Origin: Tribonema minus
Lineage: Eukaryota; Sar; Xanthophyceae; Tribonematales; Tribonemataceae
Assembly (NCBI GenBank): GCA_017506865.1
Contig: JAFCMP010000268.1
Coordinates: 558,001-622,000, forward strand
Direction of reading: 5' to 3'
DNA length: 64,000 bases
Below the pieces are notes generated by a model. That model made no database searches. It saw only the letters and a list, made by a program, of their open reading frames with translations, and was not told where the DNA came from. Of this stretch, positions 582-47,437 are shown piece after piece; within the stretch, counting starts at the first letter, position 1, and every line of letters starts with the position of its first letter. The position numbers and the translations under genes were made by a program.

Positions 582-3500
582 ACGGGGAAGCACAAGGAGA
601 GCGAGATGGCATATGTGGAGACGGTCCGTGCGGTTGGAGGGGCAGGCATCAACAAGGTGAGGCACTGTCAATTCAAGAATATCTGGAAATTTGCATGTCA
701 TAATGGTGGAATCTCATTTCAATGGAGACCAGGGGCAGATATCAACAAGGTGCGGCAACGGCAATTACAAAGTGTCTGGATATTTGCACGTCATGATGGT
801 GAAGCATAATTCATCAGAGACCATAAGTCACGAAGCGCTTGTGTGTCGCAGCGTGAATGTTGACTTGCTTGCTTCGTCGCTGTTGATGATGCCTTGGAAA
901 ACCCACCCCATCTCAATATGAAATTGCACGGAGCTGGTGTGCGGCAAGGTGCTACATGATAGCAATACCGCTCACAGCACCAGCGGAAGGTGGCAACGCT
1001 CGGGGGACGCTCCCCCCTTGAACGATGGCACTATAACCCTAGTTCTATTTGCTAACCCTAGCTCTAGCAGGGGGTTCAGCAGAGGAAACACCAGGGGCAA
1101 GGAGCTGCTCGCTCCTGGTATTCAAGGAGCACTACAACAACGGTTCCGCATGTGTTGTAGGCTACAGCTGCTCAAAGACGTGCACGCATAAGTTTGGTGT
1201 CGCGAACTACCCAGAAAAAGTGGTTTATCGCTGCAAATGCTGACAACACACGGCTCACGAGGGAGAATGCGCCGTCGCACTCAACAGAACTGCCAGGTGC
1301 ATCCCTCAGCTACTTGATCGCCTTGCGTACGCACATACACAACAGCCAGTCACTATGTGCCTGTGATTTGTTCGCTGCGCTAAGTTGTCACCTGCTCATA
1401 CAGTGTACAGTGCACTCACACAGTACTGTACCTGTGTACAGTACAGTACACACTCTACAGTACACTCACACTTTACAGTACAGTCACTCGCGCCCGGTAA
1501 GCTGTGGAATGAAGGCAGCCATCAAGGGTGCTTGCAAATCCTCTAGCCACATATCACGTGGCCACAGTCTCTGAACAATCAATAAGAGCTGTCTGTACAG
1601 GCGTTTGTGTGGATTACCAATCAAAAGTCGAATTGCAATTTGCCTTGCCGCCGCTAACCCTAATCCTAACCTATCGCTAAGCAGGAGGCGATGGCCAAGG
1701 CGAGCATGACTCTGCGCTTCCCCAGGAACCCCATCATCGGCGACAAGTTCTCCAGCCGCCACGGGCAGAAGGGCGTCATGAGTATACTCTGGCCACAGGT
1801 GTGTATGCTCCTGAAGTTGCGATGCCAGAAGTGTGGTATTAGGATGACATATCGGTGAAACGTTGTCAAGTCGCCAGGGGCAGAAGGGCGTTGTGAGTAT
1901 ACTCTGGCCGCAGGCATGTATGTATGCTCTTTGACATTTGGTTCCAGAAGTGCATCATTAGGATGACATACCAGTGAAACTTTTGTCAAGTCGCCATGGG
2001 CAGAAGGGCGTCATGAGTATACTCTGGCCACAGGTGTGTATGCTCCATGGTATGCAGTTCCAAAAGTGTATCATTAGGGTGACATATCAGTGAAACGTTG
2101 TTTAGTTGCCACGGGCAGAAGGGCTTCATTAGTATACTCTGGCCGCAGGCGAGTATGCTCCTGGTGATGCGGTTGCAGAAATGCAAAAACACTGCCAGAC
2201 CGCAGAGACTTCATTGGACCCTATTGTTGCCGCGATTCGAAACGCGTGGTGGAGTCGGGCATACTACACGTACTTGAAGTTCACGTTGTAGCTCAAAGCT
2301 GCTCAACATCAATGCCTCTTGTTGCCGCGATTTCGTGTCCGTTGTGCGGTCGGCCTTGCCCTTCAACGAGAGCGACGCAATGTATATAGACGGCTTTATA
2401 ACCTCAAGATATGCATACTTTCACAGCCACGCACTAACTGTGCAGCACGGCTTCACAAGTTTTCCACATCAGGTGTTCTCCATCCCACTTATCTCACTGC
2501 AAGTCTCGTGCCGCTGTGCAGTCTGACCCTAACCCTAACCCTGACCCTGACATGCCCTCCCCGGAGTGCGGCATGACTCCTGACATGCATCTAAATGTCC
2601 AAACCTAACCTTAAGAAATTCAAAGTCACACATCACACAGCACTGCAACAGCTTCAGGACGTCGTCATCTGACCCCTCCTTGCCGCAATTCGCCATGCGC
2701 TGTGCAGTCGGACATGCCCTTCACGGAGAGCGGCACGTAGATGGCTCATATCCTCAAGAAGCCAGACCTTCTTCAAAAGCCCATACATAGTAGCAAAACC
2801 CCATACTACCTGTGCAGCACTGCTCCAGAGCTCTATTTACACAGGATGTTATCCGCCCCAGTTGTCTCACTGCGATTCTCTTTCTCGCTGTGCAGTCTGA
2901 CATGCCCTTCACGGAGAGCGGCATGACCCCCGACATCATCATCAACCCGCACGCCTTCCCCAGTCGTATGACCATCGGCATGCTCATTGAGAGCATGGCA
3001 GGGAAGGCCGGCGCGCTGCACGGCCACTTCCAGGTATCAGTGCTCAGCATGTCATACTTCAAGTGCAAGTACGCCCTCACAGTGTAATGTCACACTTTAA
3101 AAGTGCAAGTACGCGCTGACGGCCACTTCCAGGTATCAGTGCTCACTTTGTCGTAATTCAAGTGCAAGTACGCACTGCACGGACACTTGCGCGCATTATG
3201 CCATGCTTCTTGAAGCATTTGAAACCCTGCACGGCCACTTCCAGTTGTCAGTGCTCATAATGTCATACTTCAAGTGCAAGTACACCCTAATGTTATGTCT
3301 TACTTCAAAAGTGCAAGTACGCTCTGCACGGCCACTTCCAGGTATCTGCTCACGATGTCATAATTCAAGGTGCAAGTACGCTCTGCACGTCCGCTTGCTT
3401 CCAAGTAGCTTAGGGTTAGGGTTAAGGTTAGGGTCAGGGTTAGTCCTAACCCCAACCCTGTGTGTCAGCGCTCGCCATCACCATAATTTTTTCTTGTTGC

Positions 3501-6500
3501 ACAAGAAGAACCGCCTGATGAACCACTTTACGCACAATTTTGACACATTTATAAATCCCACACTCAACGTGCATACGTTCATACTTGAAGTATGATCCAA
3601 AAAGTAAGCGTCTACCCGATCTACTTATGTACCGTATGCACAGGACGCAACGCCCTTCTCGTTCCACGAGAAGAACCGCGTGATAGACCACTTTGGGGAG
3701 CAGCTGAAGTCAGCCGGCTACGCGTACTACGGCAGCGAGCCGCTCTACAGTGGCATCAGCGGCACCGTCATGCATGCGGACATCTTCATCGGGCTCGTGT
3801 ACTACCAGCGCCTGCGGCATATGGTGTCCGACAAGAGTCAGGCAAGCGACTCCGCTTGCTGTGCTTTGCGCGCATGCTGCAGGAATGGCAGAAACGTGAA
3901 AACGATGTGAATATGCAATTTTCTGGCGAATCATCCACCTATATACACCACTAGGGGGGTCATGTCAATATTTGCTCCAGCGCCATGTCGGGTGGTACCT
4001 TTGGCTCAACGAAGAAACCAATTAGCATGCTGTTATGTACTAGCATACACGTTCCAAAAGTAGATGTATGTTAATGTCCCAGTGTCAGGTTGTGTGTGCA
4101 TATGAAAGCCTCTGCACTGTCTGTACCGCAGTAGATTGCACAAGCGGTACTGATCAGGCATGTAGCAGTGAAGTGTATTTTTGTACAGGAGAGCTCCTAC
4201 TGTGTGTGCCCTGTCGTCTTGTCCTTCCGTGCAAAATTGAAAGGCACATGACGCGTGTCTGTGGCTACCACCACAGTTTATCCTGTAAGGTCAACGTAGT
4301 GTCCCATCAGCATCACGAGGACATTGCATCTCTGCAAGAACTTGCAGATGGCAACAAAATGTCCCAGACACTTACTAAAAACTTCAAGTTTCTCAGCCTC
4401 AGGAGCGTCACCCTCTTCTCCGATCCGCAGGTTCGAGCGTCTGGCGCCGTGAACCCCCTCACACGCCAGCCCATCAAGGGCCGCAAGAACAAGGGTGGCA
4501 TCAGGTTTGGAGAGATGGAGCGCGACTCTCTGCTGTCGCATGGAGCGGTAAGTTCAACAAATATAGATGTACTTCAAGTATGGCACATGTTGAGTAAACG
4601 TGATTGGATGTACATACTGGTTTGTACACTGTCGCATGGAGCGGTAAGTTCAACAAATATACATATACTGCAAGTATCGTACACGTAGGCTGAGGGCACG
4701 GGGCTTGTTGTTGTGCAAACCTCATTGGATGTACTGCTTTGTACAATTTCACGACTCTCTGCTGGCGCGTGGAGCGGTAGGTTCAATAAACAAACTCAAT
4801 TTCAATGTATCGCATGGGCAACAGAGCCGCTGTGCCCAGCCCCCTTGCTTGCAACCCTGAACACTCCCATCCCCCTTGTCCCCCCGCTCCAAGCATTCCC
4901 TCTGCAGGATCGCCCCATTTATTGCAGCGACCGGCACCCGGCTCATGGTTCACAAGCTATCATACACGCATTCATAACGCTTGCATCCTCTATTGATTCC
5001 GCCGCAGGCGTTCCTCCTGCACAATCCTACATGTATTGTACGCATCCTACAAACATTCACAACACCTGCCTTCCATCCCCTATTGATTCCGCCACAGACC
5101 TTTCTCCTGCACGATCGCCTCATGAGCTGCAGCCAGCCCACAGTTCACAAGGCACCATACATACATACATAACGCCTGCCATCCAAATCCTCTATTGATT
5201 CCGCCGCAGGCCTTCCTCCTGCACGACCGGCTCATGAACTGCAGCGATAGGCACTCGGCGCACAGTTCACAAGCTCTCATACATGCATACATTATGCCGT
5301 CGATCCTCCATCAATTCCGCCGCAGGCATTTCGCTCTGCGCACTCAACCCATTTACCGCAATGACAGATAGCTCACAAGGCACCATACATACATACATAA
5401 CGCCTGCCGTCCAAATCCTCTATTGATTCCGCCGCAGGCGTTCCTCCTGCACGACCGGCTCATGAACTGCAGCGATAGGCATCTGGCGCACGTCTGCTGC
5501 ACGTGCGGCAGCATGCTGTCGCCGTGCCACCAGCGGAGCGCTGTCACATCTGCCGGGCGCTCGGAGGAGGAGGTCATACAGGCCAGCAGGTGCGCAAGTG
5601 CTGCTAGTTTCTATGCGGTGACAACCGGTTATCTTATCACTCCTTTTCACACCGTATCGTTGACATTGGTTGACATTGACATTTCGTAATGCTAGAACAC
5701 CAGCGGAGCGCTGTCACCTCCGCCTGACGCTCTGAGGAGGAGGCTTATTCAGGCCAGCAGGTGTGCGCAAGTGCTTCTTTTTTTGGTGAAGTAATGACCG
5801 GTTGCTTCACAGCTTCAAGGCTATTGACATGATCCATGACATGATCCATGTGAATGTGAAACCAGCGGAGCGCTGTCACCTCCGCCGGCCGCTTGGAGGA
5901 GGAGGTCGTTCAGGCCAGCAGGTGAAGGAATATGCTATATTCTATGCAAGACCGTATTTATTTCTGTGATTGTACTTCTGCTATCGACATTATTGGAATG
6001 TTCTAGCATGCATATGCTACCAGCGGAGCACGGTCACTCCGGCCGGGCGCTTGGAGGAGGAGGTCAAATAGGCCAGCAGGTGCAAAGAACATGCTTTATA
6101 CAGTGTGATAAAACGGTTATCATGTGATTGTACTACGGACATGATTGAAACGCTCAGCGTTACATCTGCCGGGCGCTAAAAAGTGAGACAGGCCAGAAGC
6201 AAGGTACCCTTTGTAGAAATATTTACCACTATCTGCTGCCCGATGTAAGCAGTACTTCCACCTCCTCTGTCTCAAATGTCTGTGCTGTGCAGTACGTTGA
6301 ACTACCATTGACGTCAAAAAGTCGATCTGTGCACGTCAACAAGCAAACTGGGTCCTTGACGTGAAACCAAAGCTCAAGTCTCAATTTCACTAGTGTTTTC
6401 TGCGGCACCAGCTGCTGCGACAGCAGCAGCAGCAGTTGAAGAGGTGGTTCACGTTTGCGTGTCACTTGCTGTTTGGGATATATCTGTGTGTGCACTGCAA

Positions 6501-7344
6501 CCACCTCACGGGCATTGAAGATCGGTACACATTTGTGTACCCCCCCTATCCCAACTGCCCATGCTCTCGAGACATCATTTCCACTACCTGCACTTATGAT
6601 TGACCTCAGTGTTGTGGATCTTGTGTGCGAATTGAGCAAAGGCACATTGGTGGAATGCTGCGCGGCCTCTGTGATGAGTGGCCTCTGTGATGAACAACCA
6701 GCACTTTGTCTGAGGCCTTGGCCCCAATGACTGAGGCAACCTGGCTAAGACGATCGATTCTGAGAGGTCGCACGCCTTTACGAGGTTGCTTTGCGTGCAC
6801 AACCGCTCAGCTCCATCGGTATTCTGCGGCATGACTTGTTGGGGAGATGGGGTGGGGGTGTTGTAATCTATGGGGCATTGTTGATTCGGGGCGCGTTTGA
6901 TGCAGGCTGTGGACTTTTGCTCAGATCACACCACGGGTTCTATAGAAGTATGAAGGCTTGGCATTCCGCATCAGTTTTACCGGGTGGTTGGCAAAGCTCC
7001 CTCGCCCATTGAAATGGCGGTGCCCTTTTCGTTCAGGGGAAAGGGCGAGCAGCTGCAACGGACTCTGTGCCCCTGCGATTTTGTGTCAGCAAGAAAACGA
7101 ATGCCGTATTCATGCCTGGCGCAATGGCGGTTTGGCGCTTGTGCAATGAGGTTTCAGCCATTTGCTCATGGAAAAACTGAACCGCCAACTTCTATGCGTT
7201 TCTGAATTGTGCAGGATGGAGCTCACATGTCGAGCCTGCCAGGACAAGGGCCAAATCGAGTCCGTCGCGATGCCCTACGTCTTCCGCTATCTGGCGAATG
7301 AGCTGGCGGGCATGGGCATCAAGCTCACGCTGACAGTCAAGTAA
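582..7344 (+). CDS. RPA2: RNA polymerase I second-largest subunit, C-terminal exons (partial)
   Basis: Catalytic beta-like subunit of RNA polymerase I, which transcribes pre-rRNA in the nucleolus. Seven exons with consistent phase give 308 residues and a stop: 582-656, 1682-1798, 2896-3033, 3644-3841, 4431-4547, 5438-5589, 7215-7344. Visible family hallmarks are [12 protein letters not shown] (exon 2), [12 protein letters not shown] and [15 protein letters not shown] (exon 3), [12 protein letters not shown] (exon 4), [18 protein letters not shown] (exon 5), [12 protein letters not shown] and the first CxxC (CCTC) in exon 6, and the second CxxC (CRAC) plus [16 protein letters not shown] in exon 7. 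Together the CxxC pairs form the C-terminal zinc ribbon. Ending soon after the ribbon fits Pol I RPA2 rather than Pol II RPB2. About two thirds of the protein lies left of the window. The intron after exon 4 begins GCAAGC (GC-AG). The exon 2 acceptor could be 3 nt later. Most introns carry degenerate copies of the neighbouring exon edges. Confidence 0.95.
640..802 (+). repeat. Donor-side exon echo, RPA2 exon ending 656
   Basis: The exon end (GGCATCAACAAG, then GTGAGG) and about 55 nt of following intron recur once at about 724-802 as GATATCAACAAG then GTGCGG. The shared intron text includes TATTTGCACGTCATGATGG against the first copy's ATTTGCATGTCATAATGG. The copy keeps a usable GT. Confidence 0.75.
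1747..2190 (+). repeat. Donor-side exon echo array, RPA2 exon 2 (4 units)
   Basis: Four tandem units of about 115-120 bp start near 1750, 1870, 1990 and 2104. Each contains the exon end GGGCAGAAGGGCGT, then AGTATACTCTGGCC, then the intron start. The first unit is the coding one. The echoed donors read GC, GT and GC after CAG, so two of three have lost canonical GT. Exon and intron parts diverge at a visibly similar rate. Confidence 0.9.
2315..2945 (+). repeat. Acceptor-side exon echo array, RPA2 exon 3 (4 units)
   Basis: Copies of the intron end and exon start (GTGCAGTCTGACATGCCC-like, then TTCACGGAGAGCGGCATG-like) lie near 2340, 2530 and 2700, before the coding copy at 2880-2945. The unit near 2530 is interrupted by three CCCTAA-type telomere-like repeats directly after GCAGTCTGA. 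All copies lie upstream of the coding acceptor. Confidence 0.85.
2521..2552 (+). repeat. Interstitial telomere-like repeat inside an exon echo
   Basis: CTGACCCTAACCCTAACC followed by CTGACCCTGACATG: three CCCTAA-type units merge into the echoed exon sequence TCTGACATGCCC. The repeat therefore sits inside a duplicated copy of the acceptor region. Confidence 0.7.
3005..3400 (+). repeat. Donor-side exon echo array, RPA2 exon 3 end
   Basis: The exon end GCACGGCCACTTCCAG with its donor GTATCAGTGCTCA and the following intron words (CATACTTCAAGTGCAAGTAC) recur near 3117, 3223 and 3328, with a further degenerate copy near 3175. Spacing is about 105 bp. Several copies retain CAG followed by GTATC. 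Confidence 0.85.
3410..3462 (+). repeat. Interstitial telomere-like repeats, both orientations
   Basis: Runs of TTAGGG and variants (TTAGGGTTAGGGTTAAGG, then GGTCAGGGTTAG) are followed immediately by the opposite orientation (CCTAACCCCAACCC). They lie in the intron between RPA2 exons 3 and 4. Confidence 0.75.
3478..3530 (+). repeat. Acceptor-side exon echo, RPA2 exon 4
   Basis: AAGAAGAACCGCCTGATG then AACCACTTT mimics the coding exon start at 3660-3695 (AAGAACCGCGTGATAGACC, then ACTTTGGG). It lies upstream of the coding copy and has no obvious conserved acceptor. Confidence 0.65.
4528..4775 (+). repeat. Donor-side exon echo array, RPA2 exon 5
   Basis: The exon end CTGTCGCATGGAGCG with donor GTAAGTTCAACAAATATA recurs near 4630 (same donor) and near 4755 (CTGGCGCGTGGAGCG, then GTAGGTTCAATAAA). 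Spacing is about 100-120 bp. Confidence 0.85.
4880..5465 (+). repeat. Acceptor-side exon echo array, RPA2 exon 6 (6 units)
   Basis: Units containing ATTGATTCCGCCGCAGG and then TTCCTCCTGCACGACCGG lie near 4890, 4995, 5085, 5195, 5305 and 5425; the last is the coding acceptor. The 5195 copy is almost identical to the coding one through CTCATGAACTGCAGCGATAG and keeps its AG. Between the units lie ACATACATACATAACGC-type spacers. Confidence 0.9.
5525..6190 (+). repeat. Donor-side exon echo array, RPA2 exon 6 end (5 units)
   Basis: The exon end (CACCAGCGGAGCGCTGTCAC, a GGAGGAGGAGGTC block, then GGCCAGCAG and GTGCGCAAG) recurs near 5700, 5863 and 6020, with a truncated copy near 6160. The period is about 160 bp. 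Three echoes keep CAGCAG before GTG, so they are credible decoy donors. Confidence 0.9.
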
Positions 7345-8680: not shown

Positions 8681-9702
8681 CCAGTGTATGAAGCGTAAGC
8701 ATGTTTTTCCTGTCTAGGTGCTTGTCAAGCAGATGCAGTTCCATTGACGATCCAAATGGCAGCGAAGCGTCATCAGTGTCAGCAAGAAGAAGCATCACAC
8801 CGACCACGGATGCGAGATGGCAATGGTATTACAGCATTACGGCATCAACGCTCGCTCGCTCGCTCACTTGCACATGCCGGGCTGATGCAGGCGCAAAGAG
8901 AGCAGCCTTAGTTGTGAAGCAGTGCTCCACTTGTCCACATGAACATGACACGCATCTCACAATAATCCCGTAGCAGCTGAGACTCGCTCAGGAGGCAAAG
9001 CTCCGCCCTGCGCCCCATACCAACATACCCGCAGGCCGCGATCATGTGCACAAACACAATGCCCCGTTGTATTGGACAACACAGGGGGGCTCCCATGCCT
9101 TTAGAAAACGCCCGTTATAGCACCCTTCCACACCACATGCTTTCAATAACCCCCCTCCCCCTCGTCCAACCCCAGCACGTCCGTCCGGAACCTGAGAGAC
9201 TGCTCCAGGGGTACCTCCCCGCCGCAAGTATCCGTCGCACTGAAGCGATGCGCAGCGCTCCACAGGCGATGATCGCTGCTGCCGCCGTTGCCGCGGAAAT
9301 CATCAAACATGTGCGGCACCTCGTTTGTGGTCTGTAGCGCATGCCGGCCGAGGCCCGTGCATAGCTGCGCAGCAGAAAATCAACCGACATGGAGTCATTA
9401 CCAATGCACATCGATCACTGAATAAAATCAATCGACATGGAGTCATTACCAATGCACATTGATCACTGATCTGAATCGCAAGAAAGTAAGGAAAGGAGCT
9501 CAAAAGAAGAGTCTACAAAAAGAGATTTTCTTTGTACTTGAACAAGGGTCATGATGCTCTGAACAGACAGAATGCACGTTGCAGCAACGCTTGCAAGCAC
9601 TGGATTGCATGGGTGGCAGAGGTGGTGTCCGTTGTGGTAGATGAAGTGCAGGTGCATGCAGATGCCCGAACGATTGCATCTGAACGCCAACATCACTTAA
9701 AT
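8681..9702. other. Intergenic with one two-copy tandem repeat
   Basis: No coding exon is supported. A tandem pair of about 47 bp lies at about 9375-9420 and 9421-9469, sharing GACATGGAGTCATTACCAAT and GATCACTGA. The stretch contains the convergent 3' ends of the 5S gene and the minus-strand coiled-coil gene. Confidence 0.5.
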
Positions 9703-17881: not shown

Positions 17882-20102
17882 TCAGTCATCGGGCCCTGCA
17901 TCCGATGCGCTCAGCACCAGGCTGCCATCGCTAGCAAAGTCGTCTTCATATGCGTCACTGCCGCGGCGCGCGGCAGCAGCAGCCGCCATGAGCGCTGCCG
18001 TTGCTGACATCGCTTTCGATGGGGGCGCTGCCGCTGGCACTGCCACCGAAGCCGCTGCTGCCGCCACCCCCTTTGACGCGAACACCTCGTGCGCTGGCTC
18101 TGAGCCAGCCTGCGGCGTCAGTTGAGGCTGCGGCGCTTGGAAACTTGAAGTTGGGGGTGATGTTGACGCACCATCTTCAGGTGGTGACGCCCCTGTTACT
18201 GCAGGCATGACACCCTTCTCGGGTATGTAGGCTGTCCTGCCGCCAGCCGGCACGAGTGCGACAGTGCACAGGGGGGTCCTGAAACTTACTCTGGTCGGCG
18301 TGGATGGGGGCGGATTTGAGGGAGGCTGCGGGAAGGCTCTGTGCAGCTGCGGGCTGAAGGACGGAGCGTCTGCACCGGAAGTTGCCTGCGTTGAAGTTAG
18401 GAAGCGCAGCGATGTCAGCATACCTGATGGCCGCAACCTGTCAGACTTAACCTGCTGCCTGACACTGTGTGCCATCGCGCTTTTCAGCATTCGTGGGGAA
18501 GAAACGCTCGGCTTTTCTAAAGCAAGCTTTCGTGCCAAGCATCTCAAAAGGTGCACGTCCATGGCATACCACACCTTCAACACGTAGGCAGTAGCGTGCA
18601 AGGGCTACAACAGGGCAACCCAGTGCATGCTCTACACTCACTTAGCCCTGGAAAGCTCTCACAAAGCTTCTTTGTCGGCACTTGCTTCAGCTTGCATTCA
18701 CGGATGCGACAGCAGGTGAATGCAGTGCGGCGGTACTACAATGCAAATTTCATGTGGAAACCTGCTTATCGCAACGTGCCTGAGCATGTTCGCTCAAACG
18801 AAGTCAAGCCCCTTCACGCTCAACACCAGCCACCTGACTTGCTCAAGTACAGGCAGTGAAACAGGGGGGTGGGGGGGGGGGTGATGGTTGCATCACGGCT
18901 CAACACCGCCTGGGCACGCACCTGCGCGTTTAACCCTAGCATCAGATCGTGAAGTTCAGCATCGCTGGGCGTCTGCACACGCTCCGCGCTAGCCCTTGTC
19001 TCGTGCTCGGCGGGCTGCCGAGCATCGCGCACAACAACAGGTGCTGCCACTGGCTGCAGCTCCGGAGCTGGCGCAGCGCTCCTGCTGTCTTCGCGCGCGC
19101 AGGCGGCAGCAGGCGCACGAGCGGCAGCATCCGCAGCAGCGCTCCGTGCTGAGGCGTGCTGCGGCCTTCCGCGCTGCTGCTGCTGCTGCTGCTGCTGCTG
19201 CCGCTGCTGCTGGCGCTGCTGCGGCCGCAGCGGCGGCGGCGACGACACCGACGACCACGAGCCGCCGCTGGAGCGCGGCGATGGCGGCGCCTGAGCACCG
19301 TGGCCATCGCTGTGCGCAAAATTGCTGTCTGCAGCAGCAGCAGCAGCAGCAGCAGGCGCTGAGCGCTGCTGCGCGGCCGCGGCATTAGACAGCGCCGTGG
19401 CGCTGGAGCTGGCGCGCGAGCTTGACGGCGACGGCTCCTGAGCGCTGCCGTAAACGCCATCCACAGCAGCAGCGGCAGCAGTGCTCAGCAGCTGCGGCGA
19501 GGAGAGCGCGTCGTCCGACACGGACGAGAACGAGCTGCTGCTGCTGCTGCGGCTGCTGCTAGACTGCGGCGGCGACGGCGGCGGTGACGGCGGAGGCGAC
19601 GGCGGCGGCGACGGCAGCGGCGACCTCAGCTGAGAGTTGTGCGCGTGCTCTACAACAGCGGCATCTACCGGCAGCACTCGCTGCGGCGGGTGCGAGGCTC
19701 GCTTCGCCGGCGCTGCTGCCGCCGGCGCCGGCGCCGCCGCTCTCGATGACGGCGGCGGCAGCGGCTCCGCCTCCGCCGCCACCGCCACCGCCACCGCCAC
19801 CGCTGCCGCCGCCGCCACCAGCGGATACGGCAGCGACTCGCGCTGCGCGGCAGCGGCGGCGCGACGGTCCGAGTCTGACTCGTGCGTAGCCTCTGAGTCA
19901 CTCTCGGTGCTGCTCTCGTAGGGTGGGTCCGCCTCGTACTCCTCGACGGTTCCCCACGATACGCTGCGCTGCGTGCGGGAGCGCACCTCCTCTGCGTCGT
20001 CGTTGTTGCCGCCGCTGCCTCTGGTGCGGCGCCCGCCGCGCCCCCCCTTGCGCGCCCCCTTGCGTATCACGAGGATGCCCTTGAGCGGCGTCGCGGCGCG
20101 GC

Positions 20103-20133
<31 letters not shown>

Positions 20134-20274
20134 ACGCTGCAGTGGCAGCAGCGGCTTGCGGATGAACGATGGGCGCGCATTCGCCAGCAACGATGTGCGA
20201 TTCGGGGCATCCGGTTGTTGTTGCTGTTGCTGCTGCTGCGGCTGCTGCTGCTGCTGCTGTTGCGGCCGCTGCTC

Positions 20275-20307
<33 letters not shown>

Positions 20308-37900: not shown

Positions 37901-40435
37901 TTGAAGTTTAGAGCACCACCAGTTGAAGAACTTGCGATGCAGCCGCCGGATGCGCAAACAGGTGCGTTGAAGTTGAGGGTGCGCAAACAGGGTGTTGAAG
38001 TTCAGAGCACCAGTAGTTGAACTCTGGTAGAGTGGCGGTGGGTGACATTGCGCTCGCGCGGCAGCCGCCGGACGCGCAAACAGGCGCGTTGGAGTTTAGA
38101 GCGGCGCTGATGTTAAGTTGATGTGTGTACACAAAGCCGCTGTGTTTGCCGCCGCCTCCCCCACCCCCCACACCATTGCCATCGCGCAGCGCTGCGCGGC
38201 GCGCGCCCTGGTGACACTGGCAGTGCTGCCGCGCAGCTTTGATCTCGCTGACCTGCTGCGGCGCTCGCACGCCATAGATGCTACAGATGTACTTCAACAT
38301 TGATGTGTTTGCTTGAAGTTCAAGATTGTGCCTCACTGTCGCCCTCGCCGCAGCGCTGCGCGCCCTGGAGAAGCTGGCGGCGCTGCCATGCAGCTTTGGT
38401 CTCGCCGACCTGCCGCAGCTCTCGCGCGCCATGGACGCTGCTGATGTACTTCAACACATTGATGCATGTACTTGAAGTTAAAGTTTGTGACTCCTTTTCC
38501 ATTGTGTCATTGCCGCAGCGCTGCGCGCCCTGGAGAAGCTGGCGGCGCTGCCGCGTGGGCCAGGCCTGGCCGATCTGCTGCAGCGCTCACACGCCATAGA
38601 TGCCGTTAAAATCGCGCGCGATGACAAGGCTGTGGAGACTGCGGAGGCGCGCGCAGCAGCCAAGGTATGTATGTACCAATGCCAGGGGGGAGTTCTGGTA
38701 CTCAGCTGAAACTGCTGGAATGGTGACGCTTGCTGTGCGTCCTTGACCTGAGCGCACCGGGGCACAAAGGGATGCTTTATTCGGCAGCGCAGCGAGAGAT
38801 ACATGCAGCTCTTGGACCCTAGAATGGGGCCACCGGTTCTGGGAGGGTCTACCGCAGGAATGATGCTCTTGGTGCATCCTCATGCTTTCTGCGGCCAAGC
38901 ACGGCAACGTAAGGCATACAGCTTCGACACCAGTACAAGACGCTGGACTCAGGTACCAATGCTGTCAGAGGTCACTTGGCAAGGCCGGTTTGAGCATGCT
39001 GCGGACATGATTTGCAGCAGTGCTTTGTGCGCCATTTGCTCGGGTCAACTCCTTCGTAGCTAAGCACAGAGTCCGCACATTGATTGAGCTGACGAGCGGT
39101 TTATGCGCGTCTACTTGGTGCTCCGAATCCGCTGGGATTCGACAGTTAGCGCATTGCCCCGATTATTGGCGCTCAGGTTGCCTGGTTTAGCCAAGTCACA
39201 AGAGCTCTCGTCAGTGGCTCACCAGTTGAGAAGCACATTTTCTGCTGCTGCTGCTGCAGGCATTGTACAAGGATTGGAAGGCAGCTGTGAGGGAGATCCT
39301 GGAAACGGAGGAGAAAGCAGCAGCGGCGGCGGCAGCGGCGGCGGCAGCAAAGAAGGCAGCAAAAGAGGCTGCAAAGGCCGAAGCTGCAGCAGCAGGCGCA
39401 AAGCAGCCGGCAAAACCAGCATTGCCAACATCCAAGTTGCCCAAGCAACCGAAGCCTGAGGCGAATGCGGAGGTGAAGCCGGAGGTGAAGGCTGAGGCTA
39501 AGCCGGAGGTGAAGGCAGAGGCGGGTGCTGCTGCCAAGAGCGCAGATGCACCTGCTGCAGCAGCAGCGCCCGCTGCTATTGAGCCTGTAGTCAAGGCTGA
39601 ACCTGTTGTCAAGCCTGAGCCAGATGCCGCAGCGGCGGCGCTGGCGGCAGATGTCGAGGGCGCAGCAGCAGCCCCAGATGCGGCGGCGGCGGCAGCAGCG
39701 GAAGCTGCGCCTACAGAAGCAGCGTCAGCAGCAGCAGCGGCGGCAGCAGCCGCAGCGGCGGTGAAAGCGGCGGCGGAGGCGAATGGCGAGCACAAGCAGC
39801 CGACGCCGCCGCATGCGGCGGAGCAGAACGGCGCTGCTGCCGCTGCTGCTGCTGCTGCATCACCAAAGCCTGTCACAAGTACCGCGCCGCCGCTGCCACC
39901 CGCAACAGTTGCCATCACCAATGGAATGGCACCAGCAGCAGCAGCAGCAGCAGAGCCGCTAGCAGCGTCTGCAGAAGCAGCCGCAGCAGCGGCGACAGCA
40001 GCGGACGCTGCCCTGGCGGCGGCGGCAGCGGCAGCACCTGCGGCAGCGGCATTGCCGGCGGCGGCGGGTCCCGCAGCAGCTGCTGCGAAGGGGGCCGCCT
40101 GGCCGCCGCCGCACATAGCGGACGAGTCGCGGCGGCGCACGCTAGAGATGCTGGCAGCAGCGCTCGGCGGCACGGCAGTGGAGCGCACGCGGCGTCTCGC
40201 GGAGGCCATCGAGGAGCAGCTGTTTGCTGCTCACTGCTGCGGGGCGGGGAGCGACGGCGGCGGCGTGTCGCAGGCGTACCGGACGGGCGCGAGAACGGCC
40301 GTGTTTCTTATGGATGCCGAAGTTAGCGGGCCCGTGGGGCGCAAGCTGAGGGATAAGGTGTGCGCGGGGCTGGTGACACCTGGCGATATCGCGGGCAAGA
40401 CGCCGGAGGCCCTCAGGCTGTCGGCCATGGTCTGA
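31943..40435 (+). CDS. PWWP, TFIIS-N and TFIIS-middle-like domain protein
   Basis: Nine exons give 986 residues with consistent phase: 31943-32373, 32506-32620, 33080-33409, 33753-34082, 35262-35413, 36371-36518, 37749-37881, 38519-38664, 39260-40435. Residues about 87-155 are a PWWP domain (KFGDLVWAKMGRYPPWPALI, FTVWFYGNNQYGFISPKGI), known to read methylated histone H3 on nucleosomes. A Lys/Pro and acidic, NLS-like linker follows (APKRAPKKAPGKAPKPAK; KRAGG; ARKRARTAATPRAKP). Residues about 547-610 match the TFIIS N-terminal (LW) domain (ALRALEKLAALP, then ALYKDWKAAVREIL). A long Ala/Glu/Lys low-complexity stretch precedes about residues 884-986, which resemble the TFIIS central domain (SRRRTLEMLAAAL, YRTGARTAVFLM, GPVGRKLRDKVCAGLVTPGD). 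The likely role is chromatin-linked Pol II elongation. The exon 3 acceptor is the least certain junction. Confidence 0.88.
32621..33079. other. Intron 2 of the PWWP gene
   Basis: No gene seen. Alternative acceptors for the next exon occur at several CAGs; 33079/33080 is chosen because it preserves frame and gives the longest open exon into the Lys/Pro-rich block. Confidence 0.45.
33698..33718. repeat. C21 homopolymer
   Basis: Uninterrupted run of 21 C in intron 3 of the PWWP gene, 34 bp before the exon 4 acceptor, so it forms part of the polypyrimidine tract. Confidence 0.9.
34060..34560 (+). repeat. Donor-side exon echoes plus ACTC microsatellite, PWWP exon 4
   Basis: The exon end CAGGTCAAGGCGCTGTGCGA then GCAG recurs at about 34177-34199 as CAGGTTAAGGCGCTGTGCGA, GCAG, with GTGCGC after it. 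A weaker copy lies near 34299-34318. Between them is an ACTC tetranucleotide array at about 34104-34165, with smaller ones near 34228, 34383 and 34507. Confidence 0.88.
35160..35870 (+). repeat. Exon 5 echoes on both sides, PWWP gene
   Basis: An acceptor-side copy near 35175-35210 (GCCTGTGCCGCTTGCAGTTG then CTG) mimics the coding acceptor at 35250-35270. Donor-side copies of the exon 3' half (CGATGACGGCGCAGGAGGCT, then CTAAGCGCCTGAGAAAGG through GAGGCGCGGAAAAG, then GTGCG) lie at about 35508-35571, 35655-35717 and 35801-35865. The period is about 147 bp. All three keep a donor GT, and each is preceded by a TAGA or CAGA that could act as an acceptor. Confidence 0.93.
36050..36425 (+). repeat. 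Acceptor-side exon echo array, PWWP gene exon 6
   Basis: Copies of AGCAAG, AACAAGAAGCAGGCGGAGGC and GGAGCGCCTGCAGCTGCTG lie near 36060-36105 and 36262-36318, before the coding exon start at 36371. The second copy preserves most of the exon start. Confidence 0.85.
36658..36712 (+). repeat. Interstitial TTAGGG array
   Basis: The longest telomere-like tract in the window: about eight TTAGGG-type units with minor variants (one with extra G, one TTAGG). It lies in an intron of the PWWP gene, far from any chromosome end. Confidence 0.9.
37085..38100 (+). repeat. Exon 7 echoes on both sides, PWWP gene
   Basis: Upstream is a dense tract of short units (TCAGTGCTCAGCAGCGCGCT, GCGCAGCGCTCAACG, CGCTGCCACACACCAG) from 37090 to 37748, ending at the coding acceptor. 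The copy near 37580-37612 reads CGCTGCCACGCGCCAGGCTC then AGGCGCC. Downstream, the exon end GCAGCCGCCGGATGCGCAAA then CAG with GTGC recurs near 37935-37965 and 38058-38090. Confidence 0.85.
38170..38600 (+). repeat. Near-complete echoes of the TFIIS-N exon (exon 8)
   Basis: Two copies precede the coding exon. That at about 38345-38445 keeps the acceptor GCCGCAG, the full first half of the exon (CGCTGCGCGCCCTGGAGAAG, CTGGCGGCGCTGCC) and the region encoding GLADLPQLSRAMDA, then runs into intron. That at about 38187-38290 is more diverged. The downstream half of the exon is absent from both. Confidence 0.9.
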
Positions 40436-41354
40436 CGCGCGGCGTCTGCTGCGAAGTGATAGGATAGCGGTGGCCTGTGCCGAAATGAACTACACTGCGC
40501 GCCGCTGTGCCCGTCTTGGTCCGTTTCGCCGCAAGTGTACGACTGGTGTGCTTGCCAGTGATAGAACAGCGGTGGCGCGCGCCATGCCATGCTCCCCGTG
40601 TCCCCCCCCCCCCCCCCCCCCCCCCCAAACCCTCCCCCCCCTCCGTACTGCAGCGTGTACGTACGTACACCCCATGTTGCAGTATTTTTGACTTCCGCGT
40701 CGTTTCACCTTGGTGTTGCTGTGGGTGAGCGAGGCCGCAGGCCTGCACAGGGGCGTCAGGCGCGGCTGTGGCAAATCGCTGTCGCTCTATCGTCAACAGT
40801 ACCCTCGCCGCTCCAGGAACCGACCGGTGTAGCTGCACACACCTGCGAGGTACGTCATGCTCTCCGGGCACGATGGTGGTATTCACTTCTTTGCTGTTGC
40901 TTCTAGCGTGGTACCTGCAGCAGCTGCCGAAAATCGTTGATTTCCTTGAATATTGCAAGGAGTGTCGACTAGTACGCTCTAGCGCGCTCCGAGCCCACAG
41001 AACGCCGTTTTTTATGCCCTCAACATGCGAAACCATCCCCCTGCGTCTCGCGGCGCGCTCGGCTCGGAAACATGGCCGCCCTTGCGCTTGATACCACAAA
41101 TAGTACAGTGCTCATCAGGGGCAGCCAACGCGTCAAGCAGAGCTGTGAGTCCAGGCAAACATGCGCATCACCAAGTTGCAGTTGAACAGAAAACCTCCCA
41201 GGGATACGCAGGAGTACAAATCACCGAGCGCATGCGCATGCGCCGCCGCACTGGTCTGTCGAGCGTTGCTTCTCGCAGAAGCTGGTGCCTGCTTAGCACT
41301 TGCTGCATCGCAGGCTCACCCAGCTCCCGCTCATGCGGCAGGCACACACCGCAT
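40436..41354. other. Intergenic region with a C25 run
   Basis: Between the PWWP gene stop and the U-box-like gene start. It contains a run of 25 C at 40602-40626 and CGTACGTACAC nearby. The reading frame of the next gene is open back to an ATG at 41025, so its first exon may begin earlier than I place it. Confidence 0.5.
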
Positions 41355-42651
41355 ATGATGGCCACGCGGCACCCCCCACGGCCTCGCGATGGGCCCTCCA
41401 CCCCCACCAAAGAACTAACGGTCATGGCCAAGGAGGCAGCAGCCATGGAGGCGGCGGACGCGGCGACGGGCAACGCGCGCCGCGGCACCAAGCGCCTCAA
41501 GAAGAGCCTGAGCATGAGGGGCATGGTGTGCGCGCCGTGGTGCGGCGGCGGCAGCAGCGGCGGCAGCGCCAACACTCGCTGCTCGTGCAGCAGTGCATCA
41601 GCGACGCCGACCACCGACGCCGCCTCCAGCGACTCCAGCGATGATGATGGACGGGACGGCAGCGACGCCCCCCGATCCCTTGCGCTGCTGCCTCAGGAGG
41701 TGCCGCCGTCGCCAGTGTCCAGCCGCACGCGCGCCGCGCTCGCCGCCGCCGCCGCGAGAGCTGCTACTGGCAGCCGCCGCGGCCGCAGCAGCGGCGGCAG
41801 CAGCAGCAGCAGCAGCGGCGGCAGCACGTGCGCAGCAGCGCTTGCCGCTGCCGCCAGAGGCGCGGATGGCGGCAGCGGCAGCGGCAGCGGCGGCAGCAGC
41901 GGCGGCAGCAGCAGCGGCAGCGGCGGCAGCAGCGGCGGCAGCAGCGGTGGCAGCAGCAGCGCTCAGGATGCGCAAGTGCGCGACCCCATTACGCTGGAGG
42001 AGCTGGGAAGCTGCACCTGGGCGTTTGTGCACGGCGGCGGCGGCGGTATGGGCAGCAGCGTTGGCGGCAGCGGCGGCGGCGGCGGCGATGGAGGCAACGG
42101 CGCTGGCGGCAGTGTGACAACGACACCACGGAATGGCAAGAACGGTGAGATGTTGTTCTTGTGCTGCATGTGTTGAGCGTTGATGCTCAGCTTTGCTGTG
42201 AACTGGGTGCTGGTGCTGCTTAAGGTTAGGACTAGGGTAAGGGTTAGTCAGGGTTTGGGTTAGGGTAGCTGCTGCTGGCGCCGCTTGGAGCGTCACTTTA
42301 GCACAACATGCGACTGCTCAGAGGATTACAGCTGTCTCATACTTCTACTTGATGCATGGTGCATCTTCACAATGCGAGTGCTCGCTGCCTTGATCACGAA
42401 ATGTTGCGGGTAATGAAAGCTTTCCGTACGGCCACAATCTGTGAGTGAGTGACCCATGCAAAGAGCGTAGTGTTGCCCAATGAAGCGTCTTCGAGTCAGG
42501 TTTGTAATATAGCACCGTGCCTATCAAACTGTTATGTTGGAATGGCAGCAGCTCGCAGTTAATGAAGTTAGCAGTTGATGCCACTTCAACTTGATACAAG
42601 CTGTGCTGCGCTGCCGCTGCTGCCGGTGCAGCAGCGGCAGCACAGCAGCGG

Positions 42652-42683
<32 letters not shown>

Positions 42684-45600
42684 TCAGGCAGCCATTGCTC
42701 GCAGAATGCGGCACAGCAATAATTCCCTCAGCTGCAATACCTCAAACGCAAATGCTGCATTCTGTCAGTGCTTGCCCACACACAGAAAAGCGCTTGTACG
42801 GGCTAGCACGAGCTGCTGTGCTTTGTGCGATTGCACCAACGGGGCAGCACACGTTAGGCGCGTGTCCTTTAAATTGATTGTGGGTACTGCACTACTTGAA
42901 GTACAACAGAGCTGTCAATGGTGCGGCACGTCTACTTAGTCCGGGGGCCTTGTATATACTTGCCTTTCATGAGGAAGTATGAAGCACCCGCATCTTGAAT
43001 CACAATGCTTGCATTCGTAGTTCTATGGCACAAATGGCCGTAGATGTCCACCTGTGCATCAGCTCTTCACTAATCCAGTCTACGCAACAGCTGCACGCCG
43101 CGTCGATGAAACGGTTCTCAACGAAACGTAATCCTCATCGTGGCGTCCTACTGCAGGCGGCAGAGTAGCGCAGCATCAGCGGAAGCCGCAGCAGCAGCGG
43201 CAGCAACAGCAGCAGCAGCAGCAGCGGCGGCAGAAGGGCGGCAGTAACACGCACACGACGCTGTACAACGTGGACTCACTGGTGCAGTACCTGCTGCACA
43301 CGGGCGATTTCTGCGAGCCCATTACGCGCATACCGTTCTCCTTGCAACAGGTACGGGCCGCCATTATCTGAGAGTTTCGAAGTAGCTCTTGTTTAAAATT
43401 GGGTTGAGGCTAGGGCTTGAAGTGAGTGGGGGGGGGAACCTCCGACAGTATTGCGTCAGTTCTCAGCGGTAGGCGCACTGGTGGCGTTTGAAGTATGCCG
43501 CACCCCTCAAAGCAGCTACGCACACCTGAGTTGCGCATTGACACAAGCAAAGTCCCCCCCCCCCCCCCCCCCGGAGTGCTAGTTCACCTTCAGTGCTGCC
43601 ACATGTGAGTCGCCGTGCATGCTACTCACCAGCTCTGACGTACCACTCTTGTGAATGCTTTGCGCGCTGTGATTCGGCCACAGGTGTCCGAGCTGCAGGA
43701 GCTGGCCGTGCACGCAGGTCAGTACACAAGAAGTACACTGCATCAAGAGTTCATCAGCAGTTCACGCCTGCACTATACTAGGCGTACTGGAGTGCCTTTG
43801 AGTTGAAGGCCTGAATCATGAAAGCTTAGCATTCGCGCCTGATACACGCGCTAGTGTTGCAGCAATTTGCCGCAGTTTCAGTGGCCCTCGTTTCACCATA
43901 CCACACAGCACACCCAAACACTCCGCTCTGATGCGTCATTTGCTTTGATGCGTCGTTTGCACAGCGCTCGTTGCGACAGGAGAGCACAGTGCTCAGCACA
44001 TTTTGCCTGAAAGAACAGGGCTTCTGCTCTCTGCGTGGCAGTGCTCTGCAGCGTCTTGGCAGCACACCAAGCGAGGCTTGCACCATGTCAGTGCTCAACC
44101 GCGCCGGTCCAATGTAGGCCACAGGCGTATGCTGCAGCAGCGAACTTTCCGAAATGTGCGCCCAGGTTTTGTAGATGCAGCGCATCTGTGTATATGTACA
44201 ACACTTTTGTACAAAGCACAGTGCCGCACAGGCACAGAACGACACGGTGTCGTACAGGTACCGAGATGTGTCATATAGTGTCGTACAGCTACGTATATGC
44301 GTTGAATCGACAACACCTGTCATACAGTGACATACACACACGGTATGCGTTTCATGGGCAACACATAGGCGCACAACGAGTCTGATGAGTTGTGCATACG
44401 CGCATATGGTCGCAGGCGTCACGATGGGAGGGAGCAAGGCGCTGGTGGAGGCTTTCCGCGTGCGCAACACGCCAAAATGCCCGTACAAGCAGGACAAAGA
44501 GCGCAGGTACGTCAGTGTAAACGCAAGAGCGTGTGCAACTCGCATTTCTGCATATCATGCATCTGCAGTTTCTGACGTTTTCAAAGTGCAACATGTGCCT
44601 CTGCGTAACCTGGTGTGATTGCTGACAACAGGTTTTGATCCACTGAGGTTAGGGTAACTGACCCTAATCCTACCAATCGATGCTCGCCACGCCTGCCTGG
44701 CTGTGATAGCATGCACCATCCGCAGTTGCACATGCGCGGCTCATACTGCAAGCATAAATGTGTGCCATGCGCGCAGCTATCCTTCACAAGCACATGCATT
44801 GTCACAAAATGACATATTCAAGTACCCAGTCTCATTGTGATATCATACTTCAAAGTTGAAGTAATGAAGTTATTTGCCTGTGCAGGGAGATGCTTCTGGG
44901 CTGCGACCGCTGCCTGGGCGACATTGTGAGCGAAATCCTGGCGGCAGTGGAGTGCGACGACCCAGAAGAGGGAGAGGTGCGTCGCACTTGAAGTATGACA
45001 TATTTGAACATTGTCCTCTGCACTTTCCTCCACTAGAAGTACTGTCTTTACCATCGTCTGAGTCATTGTTTCATCGCGTACACTGTACCCCTTTCGCACT
45101 CATAAGCACAGCGCGCGATCGCCCACGTTTGCAGGCATGCATTGCGCTGCTGCGATGGATTGCAGTGATCCACAGCTCGCCTATTGCAGACCTAGTGCCC
45201 TTAGGGTGGCGTACACAGTGTACTCGGCTGCTTGCTCACACGTGGGCGCTGCATTTGGTGTGGCTGGCTCCCCCACTTTGACAGACAAAACACTGAGATC
45301 AGTGGTGGCACCTGATATCATGAAGCAGCGCCTTGTGCTGTAGGCACTCTCAGATTTGGTCGAGGTTCCTGGCAAGAAGCAGCGCTCCGAATGTTGAAGT
45401 TCTCCTGATGTCAGGAAGGAGTGCCTTCATGCTGTAGGCACGGTCACATTTGCATGAGGTTGTTGGCAGCGCTGTGCGCATGTTGAAGTTATCGCCGCCA
45501 TCACTCCTGGCACCGCTGCTGCCGCAGGCAGTCAGCAGACGTTGAGAGCGCTGCCGTGGCGTTGGTGCCAGGGTTTACCGGCACTTCACATTTAACTTCA

Positions 45601-47437
45601 ACACCGTGCTCAGCACTCCACACTTAGTTCATGTCTATACATATTGACCGTGCCCCGGCTTTTAATGCGCTTTCGCGCTACAGCCGCAGCAGCTGGCCAA
45701 TGCTGCTGCGGCATTTGCCCACAGGGCATGTGTCCTCACACGGCATTTGGCACCCCGAGCATTGCCTTCAAACCACATCTGGCTTCAACACAATGCTCAA
45801 GATCGACTCTGTTTCTCGCCCCCGATGCGTCACAGAACCAGCCGAATCACATCTGGCTTCACCACTGTGCTGAGCACTGCCTTAGGGTTAGGGTTGCTGT
45901 GCGGAGCTGAGCACTGCACTGCCTGAGGGTTACTGTGCTCAGCACTGCCCCTGTTTCTCGCCCCCTTCTGTGCATCACAGATCCAGCTGGTGATGCTGTT
46001 CCCGCAGTTCACCCAGATGTTCTCAGAGCTGTGGAGCGCTGATACGCCCTTCGCGCGCCAATGCCTGTCGCACTACGTGGAGTCCCTGGTGGGACCGCCC
46101 AATAGACCGACGCGCGACTTGACAGGTATGCATACACACACACGTGGAACTTTGAAGTAGGTATCTATGTATACACGTGTACGCAAACCTTGAAGTAGAC
46201 TGAATATTGTGAGCCGTTCGCGCGCCAGTGCCTGTCGCACTACGTCGAGTCTCTGGTGGGAACGCCCAATAGTCCGACGTGCGACTTGACAGGTATGTAT
46301 GCATATGTATGGAAACGAATCAAAAGATGGTAGAGCTCTAGGTGACAAGGTGTGGTTAGCCGCCAGTGCCTTCCACCAATATGTATACTTAGCCGCCAGT
46401 GCCTTCCACCAATATGTATACGTGAACTTTGAAGTAGGCTGTGTATGTAGGTATGTCAGGGTATGCTTGACAGGTACGCATACATTGTACGTGGATTTGA
46501 AGTAGGCTGAGTATGTAGGTATGCGAGGGCATGCCGGAGGCCTTGGTCAGCGCTCTTTGCGACATCAATAACCTGATGTGGAAACCGTGCATGCCAAGAC
46601 ACAAAACACCAATTTATTTCACGAGTTCAAGAAGCCGTGTGTGCAAGTGGTGCTTGCTGGTTCAGCGTGTGCCTCTCCTTCTATGTAGAGTACGATCCGG
46701 TGTGCCCAATGTGTACCGCGCCTGTACTTCACCTCAATCGTGCATGCTAGATACTTTAGGCATTCTCCCTCGTCAAGACCTGCGCACTGGCTTGGTTGCG
46801 CACATCAAGTGCTTCCTGCTTAAAGGCCATTGATTGACGTGCACTCTGACGTCTATTGCTGACACTTTTGTGCCCTGCTTTTACGCGCCCACTCTTCAGG
46901 CCTGCTCCCAGTTGCGATATCCTTTCTGCGAGAGGCTGCACAAGGGTCCGGCGATGCAGCGCACTGACAACAGGGGACAGCGGGGGCTGCGGCTAAATAA
47001 CTGACAAGTAGCGGAAACAAGCAGCCACGGAGGGCTGGGTAAACGGGCAATCCACGCGTACATAAGGATGCCAAATGTGTACTGCTACGTGGCAGGAGGA
47101 TTGCAATGTCTAAAGTGCATATGGGGGGAGGGGAGAGTTGGGGGGATGGAAGAATGCCACAACTTGCTTGTGTATATCAGTGCGGTTGGCAGCATGACAT
47201 GTGTATATAGCTGCTTGCGCAACGGCGGGCGCAAAACGGCGTGTGCAGTTCAGGTTGGCAGATAAGGCATTCACTGCCCGCGGGCACGCATGAACCGCTG
47301 CCTGCGATGCGCAACGGACGGTGTCCTGGGCATGCAAACTTCAAGTTGTCAATACCACCATCATGCAGTTTGCAGAGGTTCTGCTGCGGTCTGGCAGCAG
47401 CCTTCGCACAGACGATGATCCGCCGCTGAGCCTGTGA
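41355..47437 (+). CDS. Modified RING/U-box-like protein
   Basis: Proposed exons: 41355-42144, 43157-43350, 43684-43717, 44416-44506, 44886-44976, 45981-46125 and tentatively 47376-47437; phases agree and give about 468 residues. ATG choices at 41025 and 41424 are also open. The N-terminal part is Ala/Ser/Gly-rich. DPITLEELGSCTWAFVHGGG (exon 1) and TLYNVDSLVQYLLHTGDF then CEPITRIPFSLQQ (exon 2) look like the two halves of a U-box-type fold, split by a Gly/Ser/Asn and poly-Gln insertion and an intron. The C-terminal part is helical: EMLLGCDRCLGDIVSEILAA, QLVMLFPQFTQMFSELW, CLSHYVESLVGPPNRPTRD. If the U-box reading is right, it would be an E3 ubiquitin ligase-type adaptor; catalytic function is not shown. 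The last exon is the weakest: another candidate coding stretch begins at 46900 (LLPVAISFLREAAQ). Confidence 0.65.
42145..43156. other. Intron 1 of the U-box-like gene
   Basis: It contains TTAGGG-like words at 42222-42267, a CAG/GCA run at about 42640-42690 with no supported frame, and otherwise no recognised feature. Confidence 0.5.
43554..43572. repeat. C19 homopolymer
   Basis: Run of 19 C in the intron before the 34-nt exon 3 of the U-box-like gene. Confidence 0.9.
45440..46300 (+). repeat. Exon 6 echoes on both sides, U-box-like gene
   Basis: The donor-side copy at about 46206-46293 reproduces CCCTTCGCGCGCCA, TGCCTGTCGCACTACGT, GAGTC-CTGGTGGGA, CGCCCAATAG and GCGACTTGACAG with GTATG, against the coding 46048-46130. 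Upstream, decayed copies of CAGCTGGCCAATGCTGCTG and GTTTCTCGCCCCC then GATGCGTCACAGA lie at 45540-45960. The TTAGGG word at 45882 lies among them. Confidence 0.85.
46311..46425 (+). repeat. Dispersed repeat, copy 2 of 3
   Basis: GGAAACGAATCAAAAGAT, GGTAGAGCTCTAGGTGACAA and GGTGTGGTTAGCCGCC match 12785-12840 and 55025-55080. Here a sub-block AGCCGCCAGTGCCTTCCACC then AATATGTATAC is tandemly doubled. It lies 185 bp downstream of the exon 6 donor. Confidence 0.8.

What the first reader, a model, noticed from the sequence alone, without database searches (positions are those of the whole stretch)
582..46300. Exon echoes: introns built from tandem copies of their own exon boundaries
In five independent genes on both strands (RPA2, two coiled-coil genes, PWWP gene, U-box-like gene), at least 20 exons have degenerate tandem copies of their edge in the adjacent intron. 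After a donor, the exon 3' end plus intron start is repeated downstream; before an acceptor, the intron end plus exon start is repeated upstream. Units are about 60-190 bp, with 1-6 extra copies. Seen directly: repeats at 1747-2190, 4880-5465, 5525-6190, 15803-16605, 28205-29230, 35160-35870 and others. Inference: a local duplication process is centred on splice junctions, with the spliced copy kept by selection while the others decay. Intron gain by duplication of AGGT-containing exon segments is known, but a systematic, gene-after-gene, two-sided pattern like this is not something I know as described.
Basis: partly seen in the sequence, partly recalled or inferred. Interest (0 to 1): 0.88.

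Follow-up and report, generated by a model that had tools for sequence, protein, structure and literature searches.

The report
Introns built from exon-edge tandem copies
In this yellow-green alga, stretches of roughly 140 bases seem to be copied again and again next door inside genes, and because splicing skips the extra copies, many introns have filled up with decaying copies of the ends of their own exons.

Summary
The genome is Tribonema minus. In four window genes, 20 of 46 donors and 16 of 46 acceptors have tandem "echoes" in the intron. The public RPA2 protein maps exactly with 27 introns; 16 of 27 donors and 13 of 27 acceptors carry echoes. Other contigs show them too, for example a chaperonin gene.

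The process is not aimed at splice sites. Repeats with similar period (medians 136 and 156 bp) and equal divergence fill intron interiors. Donor breakpoints are evenly spread once about 40 nt of intron is spared. The exon part of donor echoes has diverged 13%, the intron part 22.5%, as expected if the exon copy is conserved.

Best reading: frequent small tandem duplication filtered by selection; a copy crossing one splice site leaves the mRNA intact. Unexplained: unbiased simulations give too few junction-crossing copies and need a 3-5-fold boost, and a 56-intron gene has none.

Single events are known (potato RdRp); a pervasive version did not appear in my searches.

The parts
582..7344 (+). 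3' part of the RPA2 gene (RNA polymerase I second-largest subunit); the gene starts about 23.5 kb upstream of the window
   Evidence: PDB 7aoc_B E 7e-273; public Tribonema minus Rpa2 protein P0001 on a contig of the same length, 1059158; exact spliced map, 27 introns
731..779 (+). echo of the donor at 657 (1 copy)
1884..2178 (+). three echoes of the exon end and intron start at donor 1799
   Evidence: stretch 1757-2160 matches only itself in the genome
2327..2735 (+). four echoes of the intron end and exon start at acceptor 2896
3112..3369 (+). three echoes of donor 3034
4629..4805 (+). two echoes of donor 4548
4985..5339 (+). four echoes of acceptor 5438
5734..6083 (+). three echoes of donor 5594 (public model; the gene finder places it at 5590)
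9143..17312 (-). predicted gene, coiled-coil-like by eye; 4 of 9 donors and 7 of 9 acceptors have echoes
   Evidence: gene finder
15970..16595 (-). six echoes of the acceptor at 15878
11329..11888 (-). three echoes of the acceptor at 11234
12733..13094 (-). two echoes of the acceptor at 12588
17882..29963 (-). second predicted minus-strand gene; 6 of 12 donors and 3 of 12 acceptors have echoes
   Evidence: gene finder
28325..28627 (-). three echoes of the donor at 28698
28986..29193 (-). echoes of the acceptor at 28858 and the donor at 29193
31943..47437 (+). PWWP-domain gene model; 5 of 18 donors and 4 of 18 acceptors have echoes; may be more than one gene
   Evidence: PF00855 E 1.3e-11
35539..35889 (+). 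three echoes of the donor at 35414
37932..38101 (+). two echoes of the donor at 37882
46263..46500 (+). two echoes of the donor at 46126

Best explanation
Genes of this alga undergo frequent small tandem duplications of roughly 80-280 bp (medians 136-156) at more or less random places. Duplications inside an exon are removed by selection. Those inside an intron, or across only one splice site, are tolerated: splicing uses the first donor and the last acceptor, so the extra exon edge falls into the intron and the mRNA is unchanged. The exon copy is then conserved while the echo drifts, so introns lengthen and fill with decaying copies of their own edges. SHOWN: the copies, their direction, scattered breakpoints with a spared margin at the splice site, lower divergence in the exon part, echoes lying inside introns of the public RPA2 model, and similar period and equal divergence for interior repeats. 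INFERRED: neutrality, outer-site splicing in other genes, and the duplication chemistry (perhaps fill-in and end joining of breaks with 3' overhangs, as described in mouse cells). NOT EXPLAINED: more junction-crossing copies than unbiased simulations give, and genes with no copies.
For: Repeat frequency is flat through the intron. Period and identity are alike for junction-crossing and intron-only pairs (156 vs 136, p=0.07; 80.6 vs 81.0%, p=0.91; 108 and 124 pairs in ten genes). The exon share of the donor unit is uniform once 40 nt of intron is spared (47 of 51 units inside that range, KS p=0.66; margin 30 nt p=0.19, no margin p<0.001); the 51 are those of 64 with period 60-260 and exon room. 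Among units with at least 40 nt of exon, echoes begin under 30 nt from the donor in 2 of 30 (10.1 expected) and from the acceptor in 1 of 25 (7.5 expected). Divergence: 13.0% exon part vs 22.5% intron part at donors, 14.2% vs 19.6% at acceptors. In the public protein, echoes at 16 donors and 13 acceptors are left in introns. Stretches tested match their own locus (one search adds two 60-bp matches). Echoes keep GT in 102 of 126 and AG in 74 of 98, close to neighbouring sites. Of 18 pairs with identity of at least 92%, 6 are head to tail within -5 to +4 bp; not all lie in introns.
Against: Unbiased simulations give 0.45-0.54 crossing pairs per intron-only pair against 0.87 observed, and 42-53% of repeat-bearing introns with no anchored copy against 17% (22% in all non-C112 introns); crossing events must be boosted 3-5-fold to match. 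In the earlier simulation, in the runs nearest to the observed interior levels, exon ends had a copy in 18-23% against 39% (donor) and 28% (acceptor) seen. The acceptor side is not uniform even with a 40-nt margin (KS p=0.004). Rates are very uneven: 10 of 13 genes with at least 8 tested introns have echoes, a gene on C112 with 56 tested introns has none. Twelve of the 18 young pairs are not clean head-to-tail. Junctions outside RPA2 come from my own gene finder.
Confidence: 0.68

Rival explanations
1. Junction-biased duplication: the duplication machinery acts preferentially around exon-intron junctions (for example through transcription, R-loops or exon nucleosomes), so that edges are copied more than introns at large.
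For: A 3-5-fold boost of crossing events is needed in simulation. In RPA2, 31 crossing to 43 intron-only pairs in 25 introns with checked exons, against a ratio of 0.22 from start positions alone, detection bias not included. Few repeats in intergenic windows of two blocks: 5 of 226 against 383 of 1136 intron windows in B0, 2 of 147 against 66 of 449 in B3.
Against: Breakpoints do not cluster at the junction; interior repeats are about as frequent, with similar period and equal divergence. Other blocks show a weaker intergenic contrast or the reverse (20 of 129 against 86 of 280 in B2, 5 of 27 against 204 of 561 in B4, 7 of 18 against 3 of 401 in B1), and intergenic sequence in B0 is rich in transposons. 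The simulation leaves out indel-rich decay and rate variation along introns.
Confidence: 0.22
2. The echoes are alternative exons or splice regulators kept by selection.
For: 81% of donor echoes keep GT and 76% of acceptor echoes keep AG. The public RPA2 model includes one acceptor echo as a 60-nt in-frame exon.
Against: Copies hold part of an exon (median 51.5 nt at donors, 44 at acceptors; a whole exon in 8 of 64 and 3 of 52). Intron and exon parts diverge as if only the exon copy were constrained. The RPA2 reading without echoes aligns along nearly the whole S. pombe chain (alignment printed in part), and the brown-alga homologue P0002 lacks the 20 residues of the annotated echo exon.
Confidence: 0.04
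3. Intron birth by tandem duplication of an AGGT-containing exon segment (the Rogers model).
For: Same mutation type. Of 230 predicted introns, 8 start like the downstream exon start and 8 end like the upstream exon end (null 0.24%), so a few may be of this kind.
Against: Each end fits 3.5% of introns, and 0 and 1 of 27 in RPA2 (null 1.7%). Most echoes carry the existing junction with its intron part, often several copies.
Confidence: 0.03
4. Assembly artefact or a dispersed repeat such as an introner.
For: Tandem arrays are a common place for assembly errors.
Against: Pair identities run from 70 to 95% (5th to 95th percentile); stretches tested match their own locus (two further 60-bp matches); the pattern recurs on eight contigs.
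Confidence: 0.02

Closest known systems
Intron gain by tandem duplication across an intron-exon boundary, potato RdRp (PMC4974935; abstract and Introduction read)
   Same: A tandem duplication crosses one intron-exon boundary and splicing absorbs it
   Different: One event creating one new intron; here many copies lengthen existing introns, on both sides, often several per junction
Rogers AGGT duplication model; ATP2A1; fission yeast 24-bp repeats (as described in the Introduction of PMC4974935)
   Same: Tandem duplication of exon sequence gives intron sequence with an unchanged peptide
   Different: There the new intron arises from exon sequence; here most units contain a pre-existing splice junction plus intron
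Small tandem duplications by CST-Pol alpha fill-in and end joining (PMC8355091; abstract and passages seen)
   Same: Small tandem duplications at breaks; [quoted passage not shown]
   Different: Shown in mouse ES cells with induced breaks with 43-bp overhangs; units here are longer and no repair pathway was tested
Introners (PMC9860276; search listing only)
   Same: Large-scale production of intron sequence
   Different: Introners are dispersed element copies; these units are local

Membership tests
Tandem duplication across a splice site | Nearby direct copies that contain both exon and intron sequence of the same junction | tested here: met
Tandem duplication across a splice site | The mRNA is unchanged because the outer splice site is used | tested here: inconclusive
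   The public RPA2 model agrees except for one annotated echo exon; homologues agree; no RNA reads at hand
Rogers-type intron gain | Intron start copies the downstream exon start, intron end copies the upstream exon end | tested here: not met
   8 and 8 of 230 introns, 0 and 1 of 27 in RPA2; not met for the bulk, a few exceptions possible
Introner or dispersed element | Similar copies at many unlinked introns | tested here: not met
   three stretches searched: own locus only; own locus plus two 60-bp matches
Fill-in type small tandem duplication | Head to tail, little microhomology at the joint | tested here: inconclusive
   6 of 18 young pairs within -5 to +4 bp; the other 12 are shorter than, or not in register with, their period
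Fill-in type small tandem duplication | Dependence on Ku80, CST and Pol alpha-primase | not testable with these tools
   needs mutants

The most novel reading that the evidence does not exclude
In Tribonema minus a transcription- or splicing-linked tandem duplication process, biased to the surroundings of exon-intron junctions and varying greatly between genes, is the main builder of intron sequence. Introns here are largely layered fossil copies of their own exon edges, and the spared margin of the echoes reads out the length of the functional splice signals.
Probability: 0.3. Interest if true: 0.82.

Novelty: new variant of a known kind. Interest (0 to 1): 0.62.

Why it matters
Where intron sequence comes from, and why introns grow, has mostly been inferred from few traced cases. 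Here one genome holds many datable events, with several nearly identical donors or acceptors in a row. That makes three things testable: the rate and origin of small tandem duplications in a natural genome, the rule by which the spliceosome picks the outermost of similar sites, and the length of intron needed at each end (about 40 nt at donors, seemingly more at acceptors). It also warns annotators: my gene finder called 79 echo-like exons among 468 (13 of the 79 in three repeat-protein genes), and the public RPA2 model includes one.

Tried and rejected
Dispersed element: rejected by genome searches with three stretches. Assembly artefact: rejected by divergence. Rogers-type origin: tested, fits few introns. 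A first simulation used rates far too high and no splice margin and was dropped; a second had the margin and already gave too few exon-edge copies. A geometry script matched introns to themselves and was redone. One script stopped on a file name after giving the real-data rows; its simulations were rerun. The ten genes used for ratios ('host10'; nine of them plus RPA2's public model) were chosen, as host genes with echoes, so their absolute rates are inflated. All non-C112 introns (231): donor 27.3%, acceptor 20.3%; of 116 with any repeat, 22% have neither edge anchored. The 40-nt margin was one of three tried (0, 30, 40). Dropped before counting: four B2 genes with repeat-like proteins, introns under 120 nt, exons judged echo-like. 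Haplotype comparison was considered; none of three stretches has a second full copy. My guess of a green alga and of Haematococcus (search) was wrong; one search showed Tribonema. The report was returned once for its format.
Full report
WHAT AND WHERE. The window is part of a 1,059,158-base contig (C268) of a 158-Mb assembly in 554 contigs. The RPA2 protein read from it is 93% identical to the protein named DNA-directed RNA polymerase I complex subunit Rpa2p of Tribonema minus, whose contig has exactly that length, so the organism is very probably this yellow-green alga. I read DNA from five blocks: B0 (window plus 30 kb upstream and 20 kb downstream, 114 kb) and four 50-kb blocks, B1-B4, on C112, C511, C544 and C334, placed by round coordinates on long contigs, plus 6 kb of C51 and 8 kb more of C112.

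Local direct repeats (under 1.5 kb apart) number 160, 1, 71, 35 and 142 in B0-B4 and 0 in one order-2 shuffle of each. For exact junctions I mapped the public RPA2 protein to the DNA: it fits with 27 introns; 16 of 27 donors and 13 of 27 acceptors have echoes, 43 and 27 copies in all. An exon set judged by homology gave 17 of 26 and 11 of 25 (S. pombe RPA2, alignment printed in part). For the other genes I trained a simple gene finder on kinase and RPA2 exons and then on its own output. In four window genes this gives 20 of 46 donors and 16 of 46 acceptors; the transposon-like models 5-7, the last of which runs beyond the window, give 1 of 11 and 0 of 11.

HOW WIDESPREAD. Over all blocks, 70 of 297 donors and 63 of 297 acceptors score above the 99th percentile of a cross-gene null (null rate 0.7 and 1.1%); intron interiors give 76 of 532 and exon interiors 25 of 259 (null 0.3 and 2.2%). 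By block the donors are 41/107, 0/66, 3/15, 6/45 and 20/64. Of 13 predicted genes with at least 8 tested introns, 10 have echoes; the exceptions are both C112 models and one on C544 (four repeat-protein genes of B2 were left out). Pfam searches, which use no gene model of mine, show overlapping hits to the same profile stretch within about 420 bases in chaperonin genes on C51, C5 and C135 (56 hits read by eye) and in kinesin genes on C246 and C511 (132 hits read by eye). On C51, 61 of 99 windows are repeated, and a chaperonin exon start is present three times in under 700 bases.

NOT AIMED AT THE JUNCTION. In 161 introns of at least 360 nt (C112 block left out), the share of 60-nt windows with a local copy is 0.28-0.44 in the intron bins on the donor side and 0.28-0.32 on the acceptor side; the last 60 exon nt give 0.41 and the first 60 give 0.34; exon windows further in give 0.35-0.38 on the donor side and 0.27-0.29 on the acceptor side. 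Junction-crossing and intron-only pairs have similar period (medians 156 and 136, p=0.07) and equal identity (80.6 and 81.0%, p=0.91; 108 and 124 pairs in ten genes). In donor echoes the exon share ranges from 8 to 127 nt apart from one outlier of 275 (64 units) and is uniform once 40 nt of intron are spared (KS p=0.66, 47 of 51 units kept); without the margin uniformity fails. This is what random duplication filtered by the need to keep splice signals would leave. At acceptors a 40-nt margin is not enough (p=0.004), perhaps because branch point and pyrimidine tract reach further; that is inference.

SELECTION KEEPS THE SPLICED COPY. Matches between junction and echo are 0.870 in the exon part and 0.775 in the intron part at donors, 0.858 and 0.804 at acceptors, that is divergence ratios of 0.58 and 0.73. 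One conserved and one drifting copy would give about half. In 51 pairs with both parts the exon part is more alike (0.878 vs 0.831, Wilcoxon p=0.006; exon higher in 32 of 51). Echoes keep GT in 102 of 126 and AG in 74 of 98 copies, so many decoy sites persist, unused if the public model is right.

WHAT REMAINS. Simulations with exon constraint, splice margins, deletions and, in two of three unbiased runs, rate variation give 0.45-0.54 crossing pairs per intron-only pair and 42-53% of repeat-bearing introns with no anchored copy; the ten-gene set shows 0.87 and 17%, all non-C112 introns 22%. A boost of crossing events between 3 and 5 fits. The ten genes were picked after seeing which had echoes, so I trust the ratio more than the rates. 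With one-sided targets, junction windows beat interior windows about two-fold. Intergenic windows have few copies in B0 (5/226) and B3 (2/147), but 20/129 in B2, 5/27 in B4 and 7/18 in B1, and B0's are transposon-rich. A 63-exon gene on C112 with a ZZ zinc finger (it resembles UBR4 from recall) has 0 of 56 donors and 0 of 56 acceptors, though its block's codon use and splice motifs match the rest. So rate differs strongly between genes, and I cannot say why.

PRECEDENT. The event type is in print: a duplication across an intron-exon boundary in potato RdRp (PMC4974935, abstract and Introduction). A mechanism for small tandem duplications is in print (PMC8355091, abstract and passages). A systematic pattern like this did not appear in the listings of my ten paper searches, which cover open-licence papers only; I did not find the T. 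minus genome paper there. I therefore call it a new variant of a known kind.

Noticed in passing
L015-L019 (C112:400001-450000), L036 (C112:1000001-1008000): C112 shows no echoes in a 63-exon gene and, about 0.55 Mb on, intron-poor predicted genes, one with an OTU-protease-like look (by eye, untested); this contig may have a different history.
   Followed up: partly
window 60676-63999 and 48279-48670; L012:4245-4502: A reverse-transcriptase ORF (PF00078) and near-identical protein pieces in three predicted models suggest a dispersed retroelement.
   Followed up: no
window 3842, 5594; L011:4517: The exact map of the public RPA2 protein implies GC donors at three introns; at 5594 a GT four bases upstream is an alternative.
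   Followed up: partly
window 3410-3443, 36659-36712; L030-L034: Telomere-like TTAGGG runs lie inside predicted introns; TTAGGG/CCCTAA is 18.8 per 10 kb in the C334 block against 0.6-6.8 in the others. May mark repaired breaks.
   Followed up: partly
L010:1223-1282; protein P0001: The public RPA2 model contains a 60-nt in-frame exon that is an acceptor echo: a likely annotation error or a newborn exon.
   Followed up: partly
C90 and C179; C144, C223 and C278: Kinase hits with equal or nearly equal scores at matching spacing suggest haplotigs or duplicated contigs; useful for seeing duplication polymorphism.
   Followed up: no
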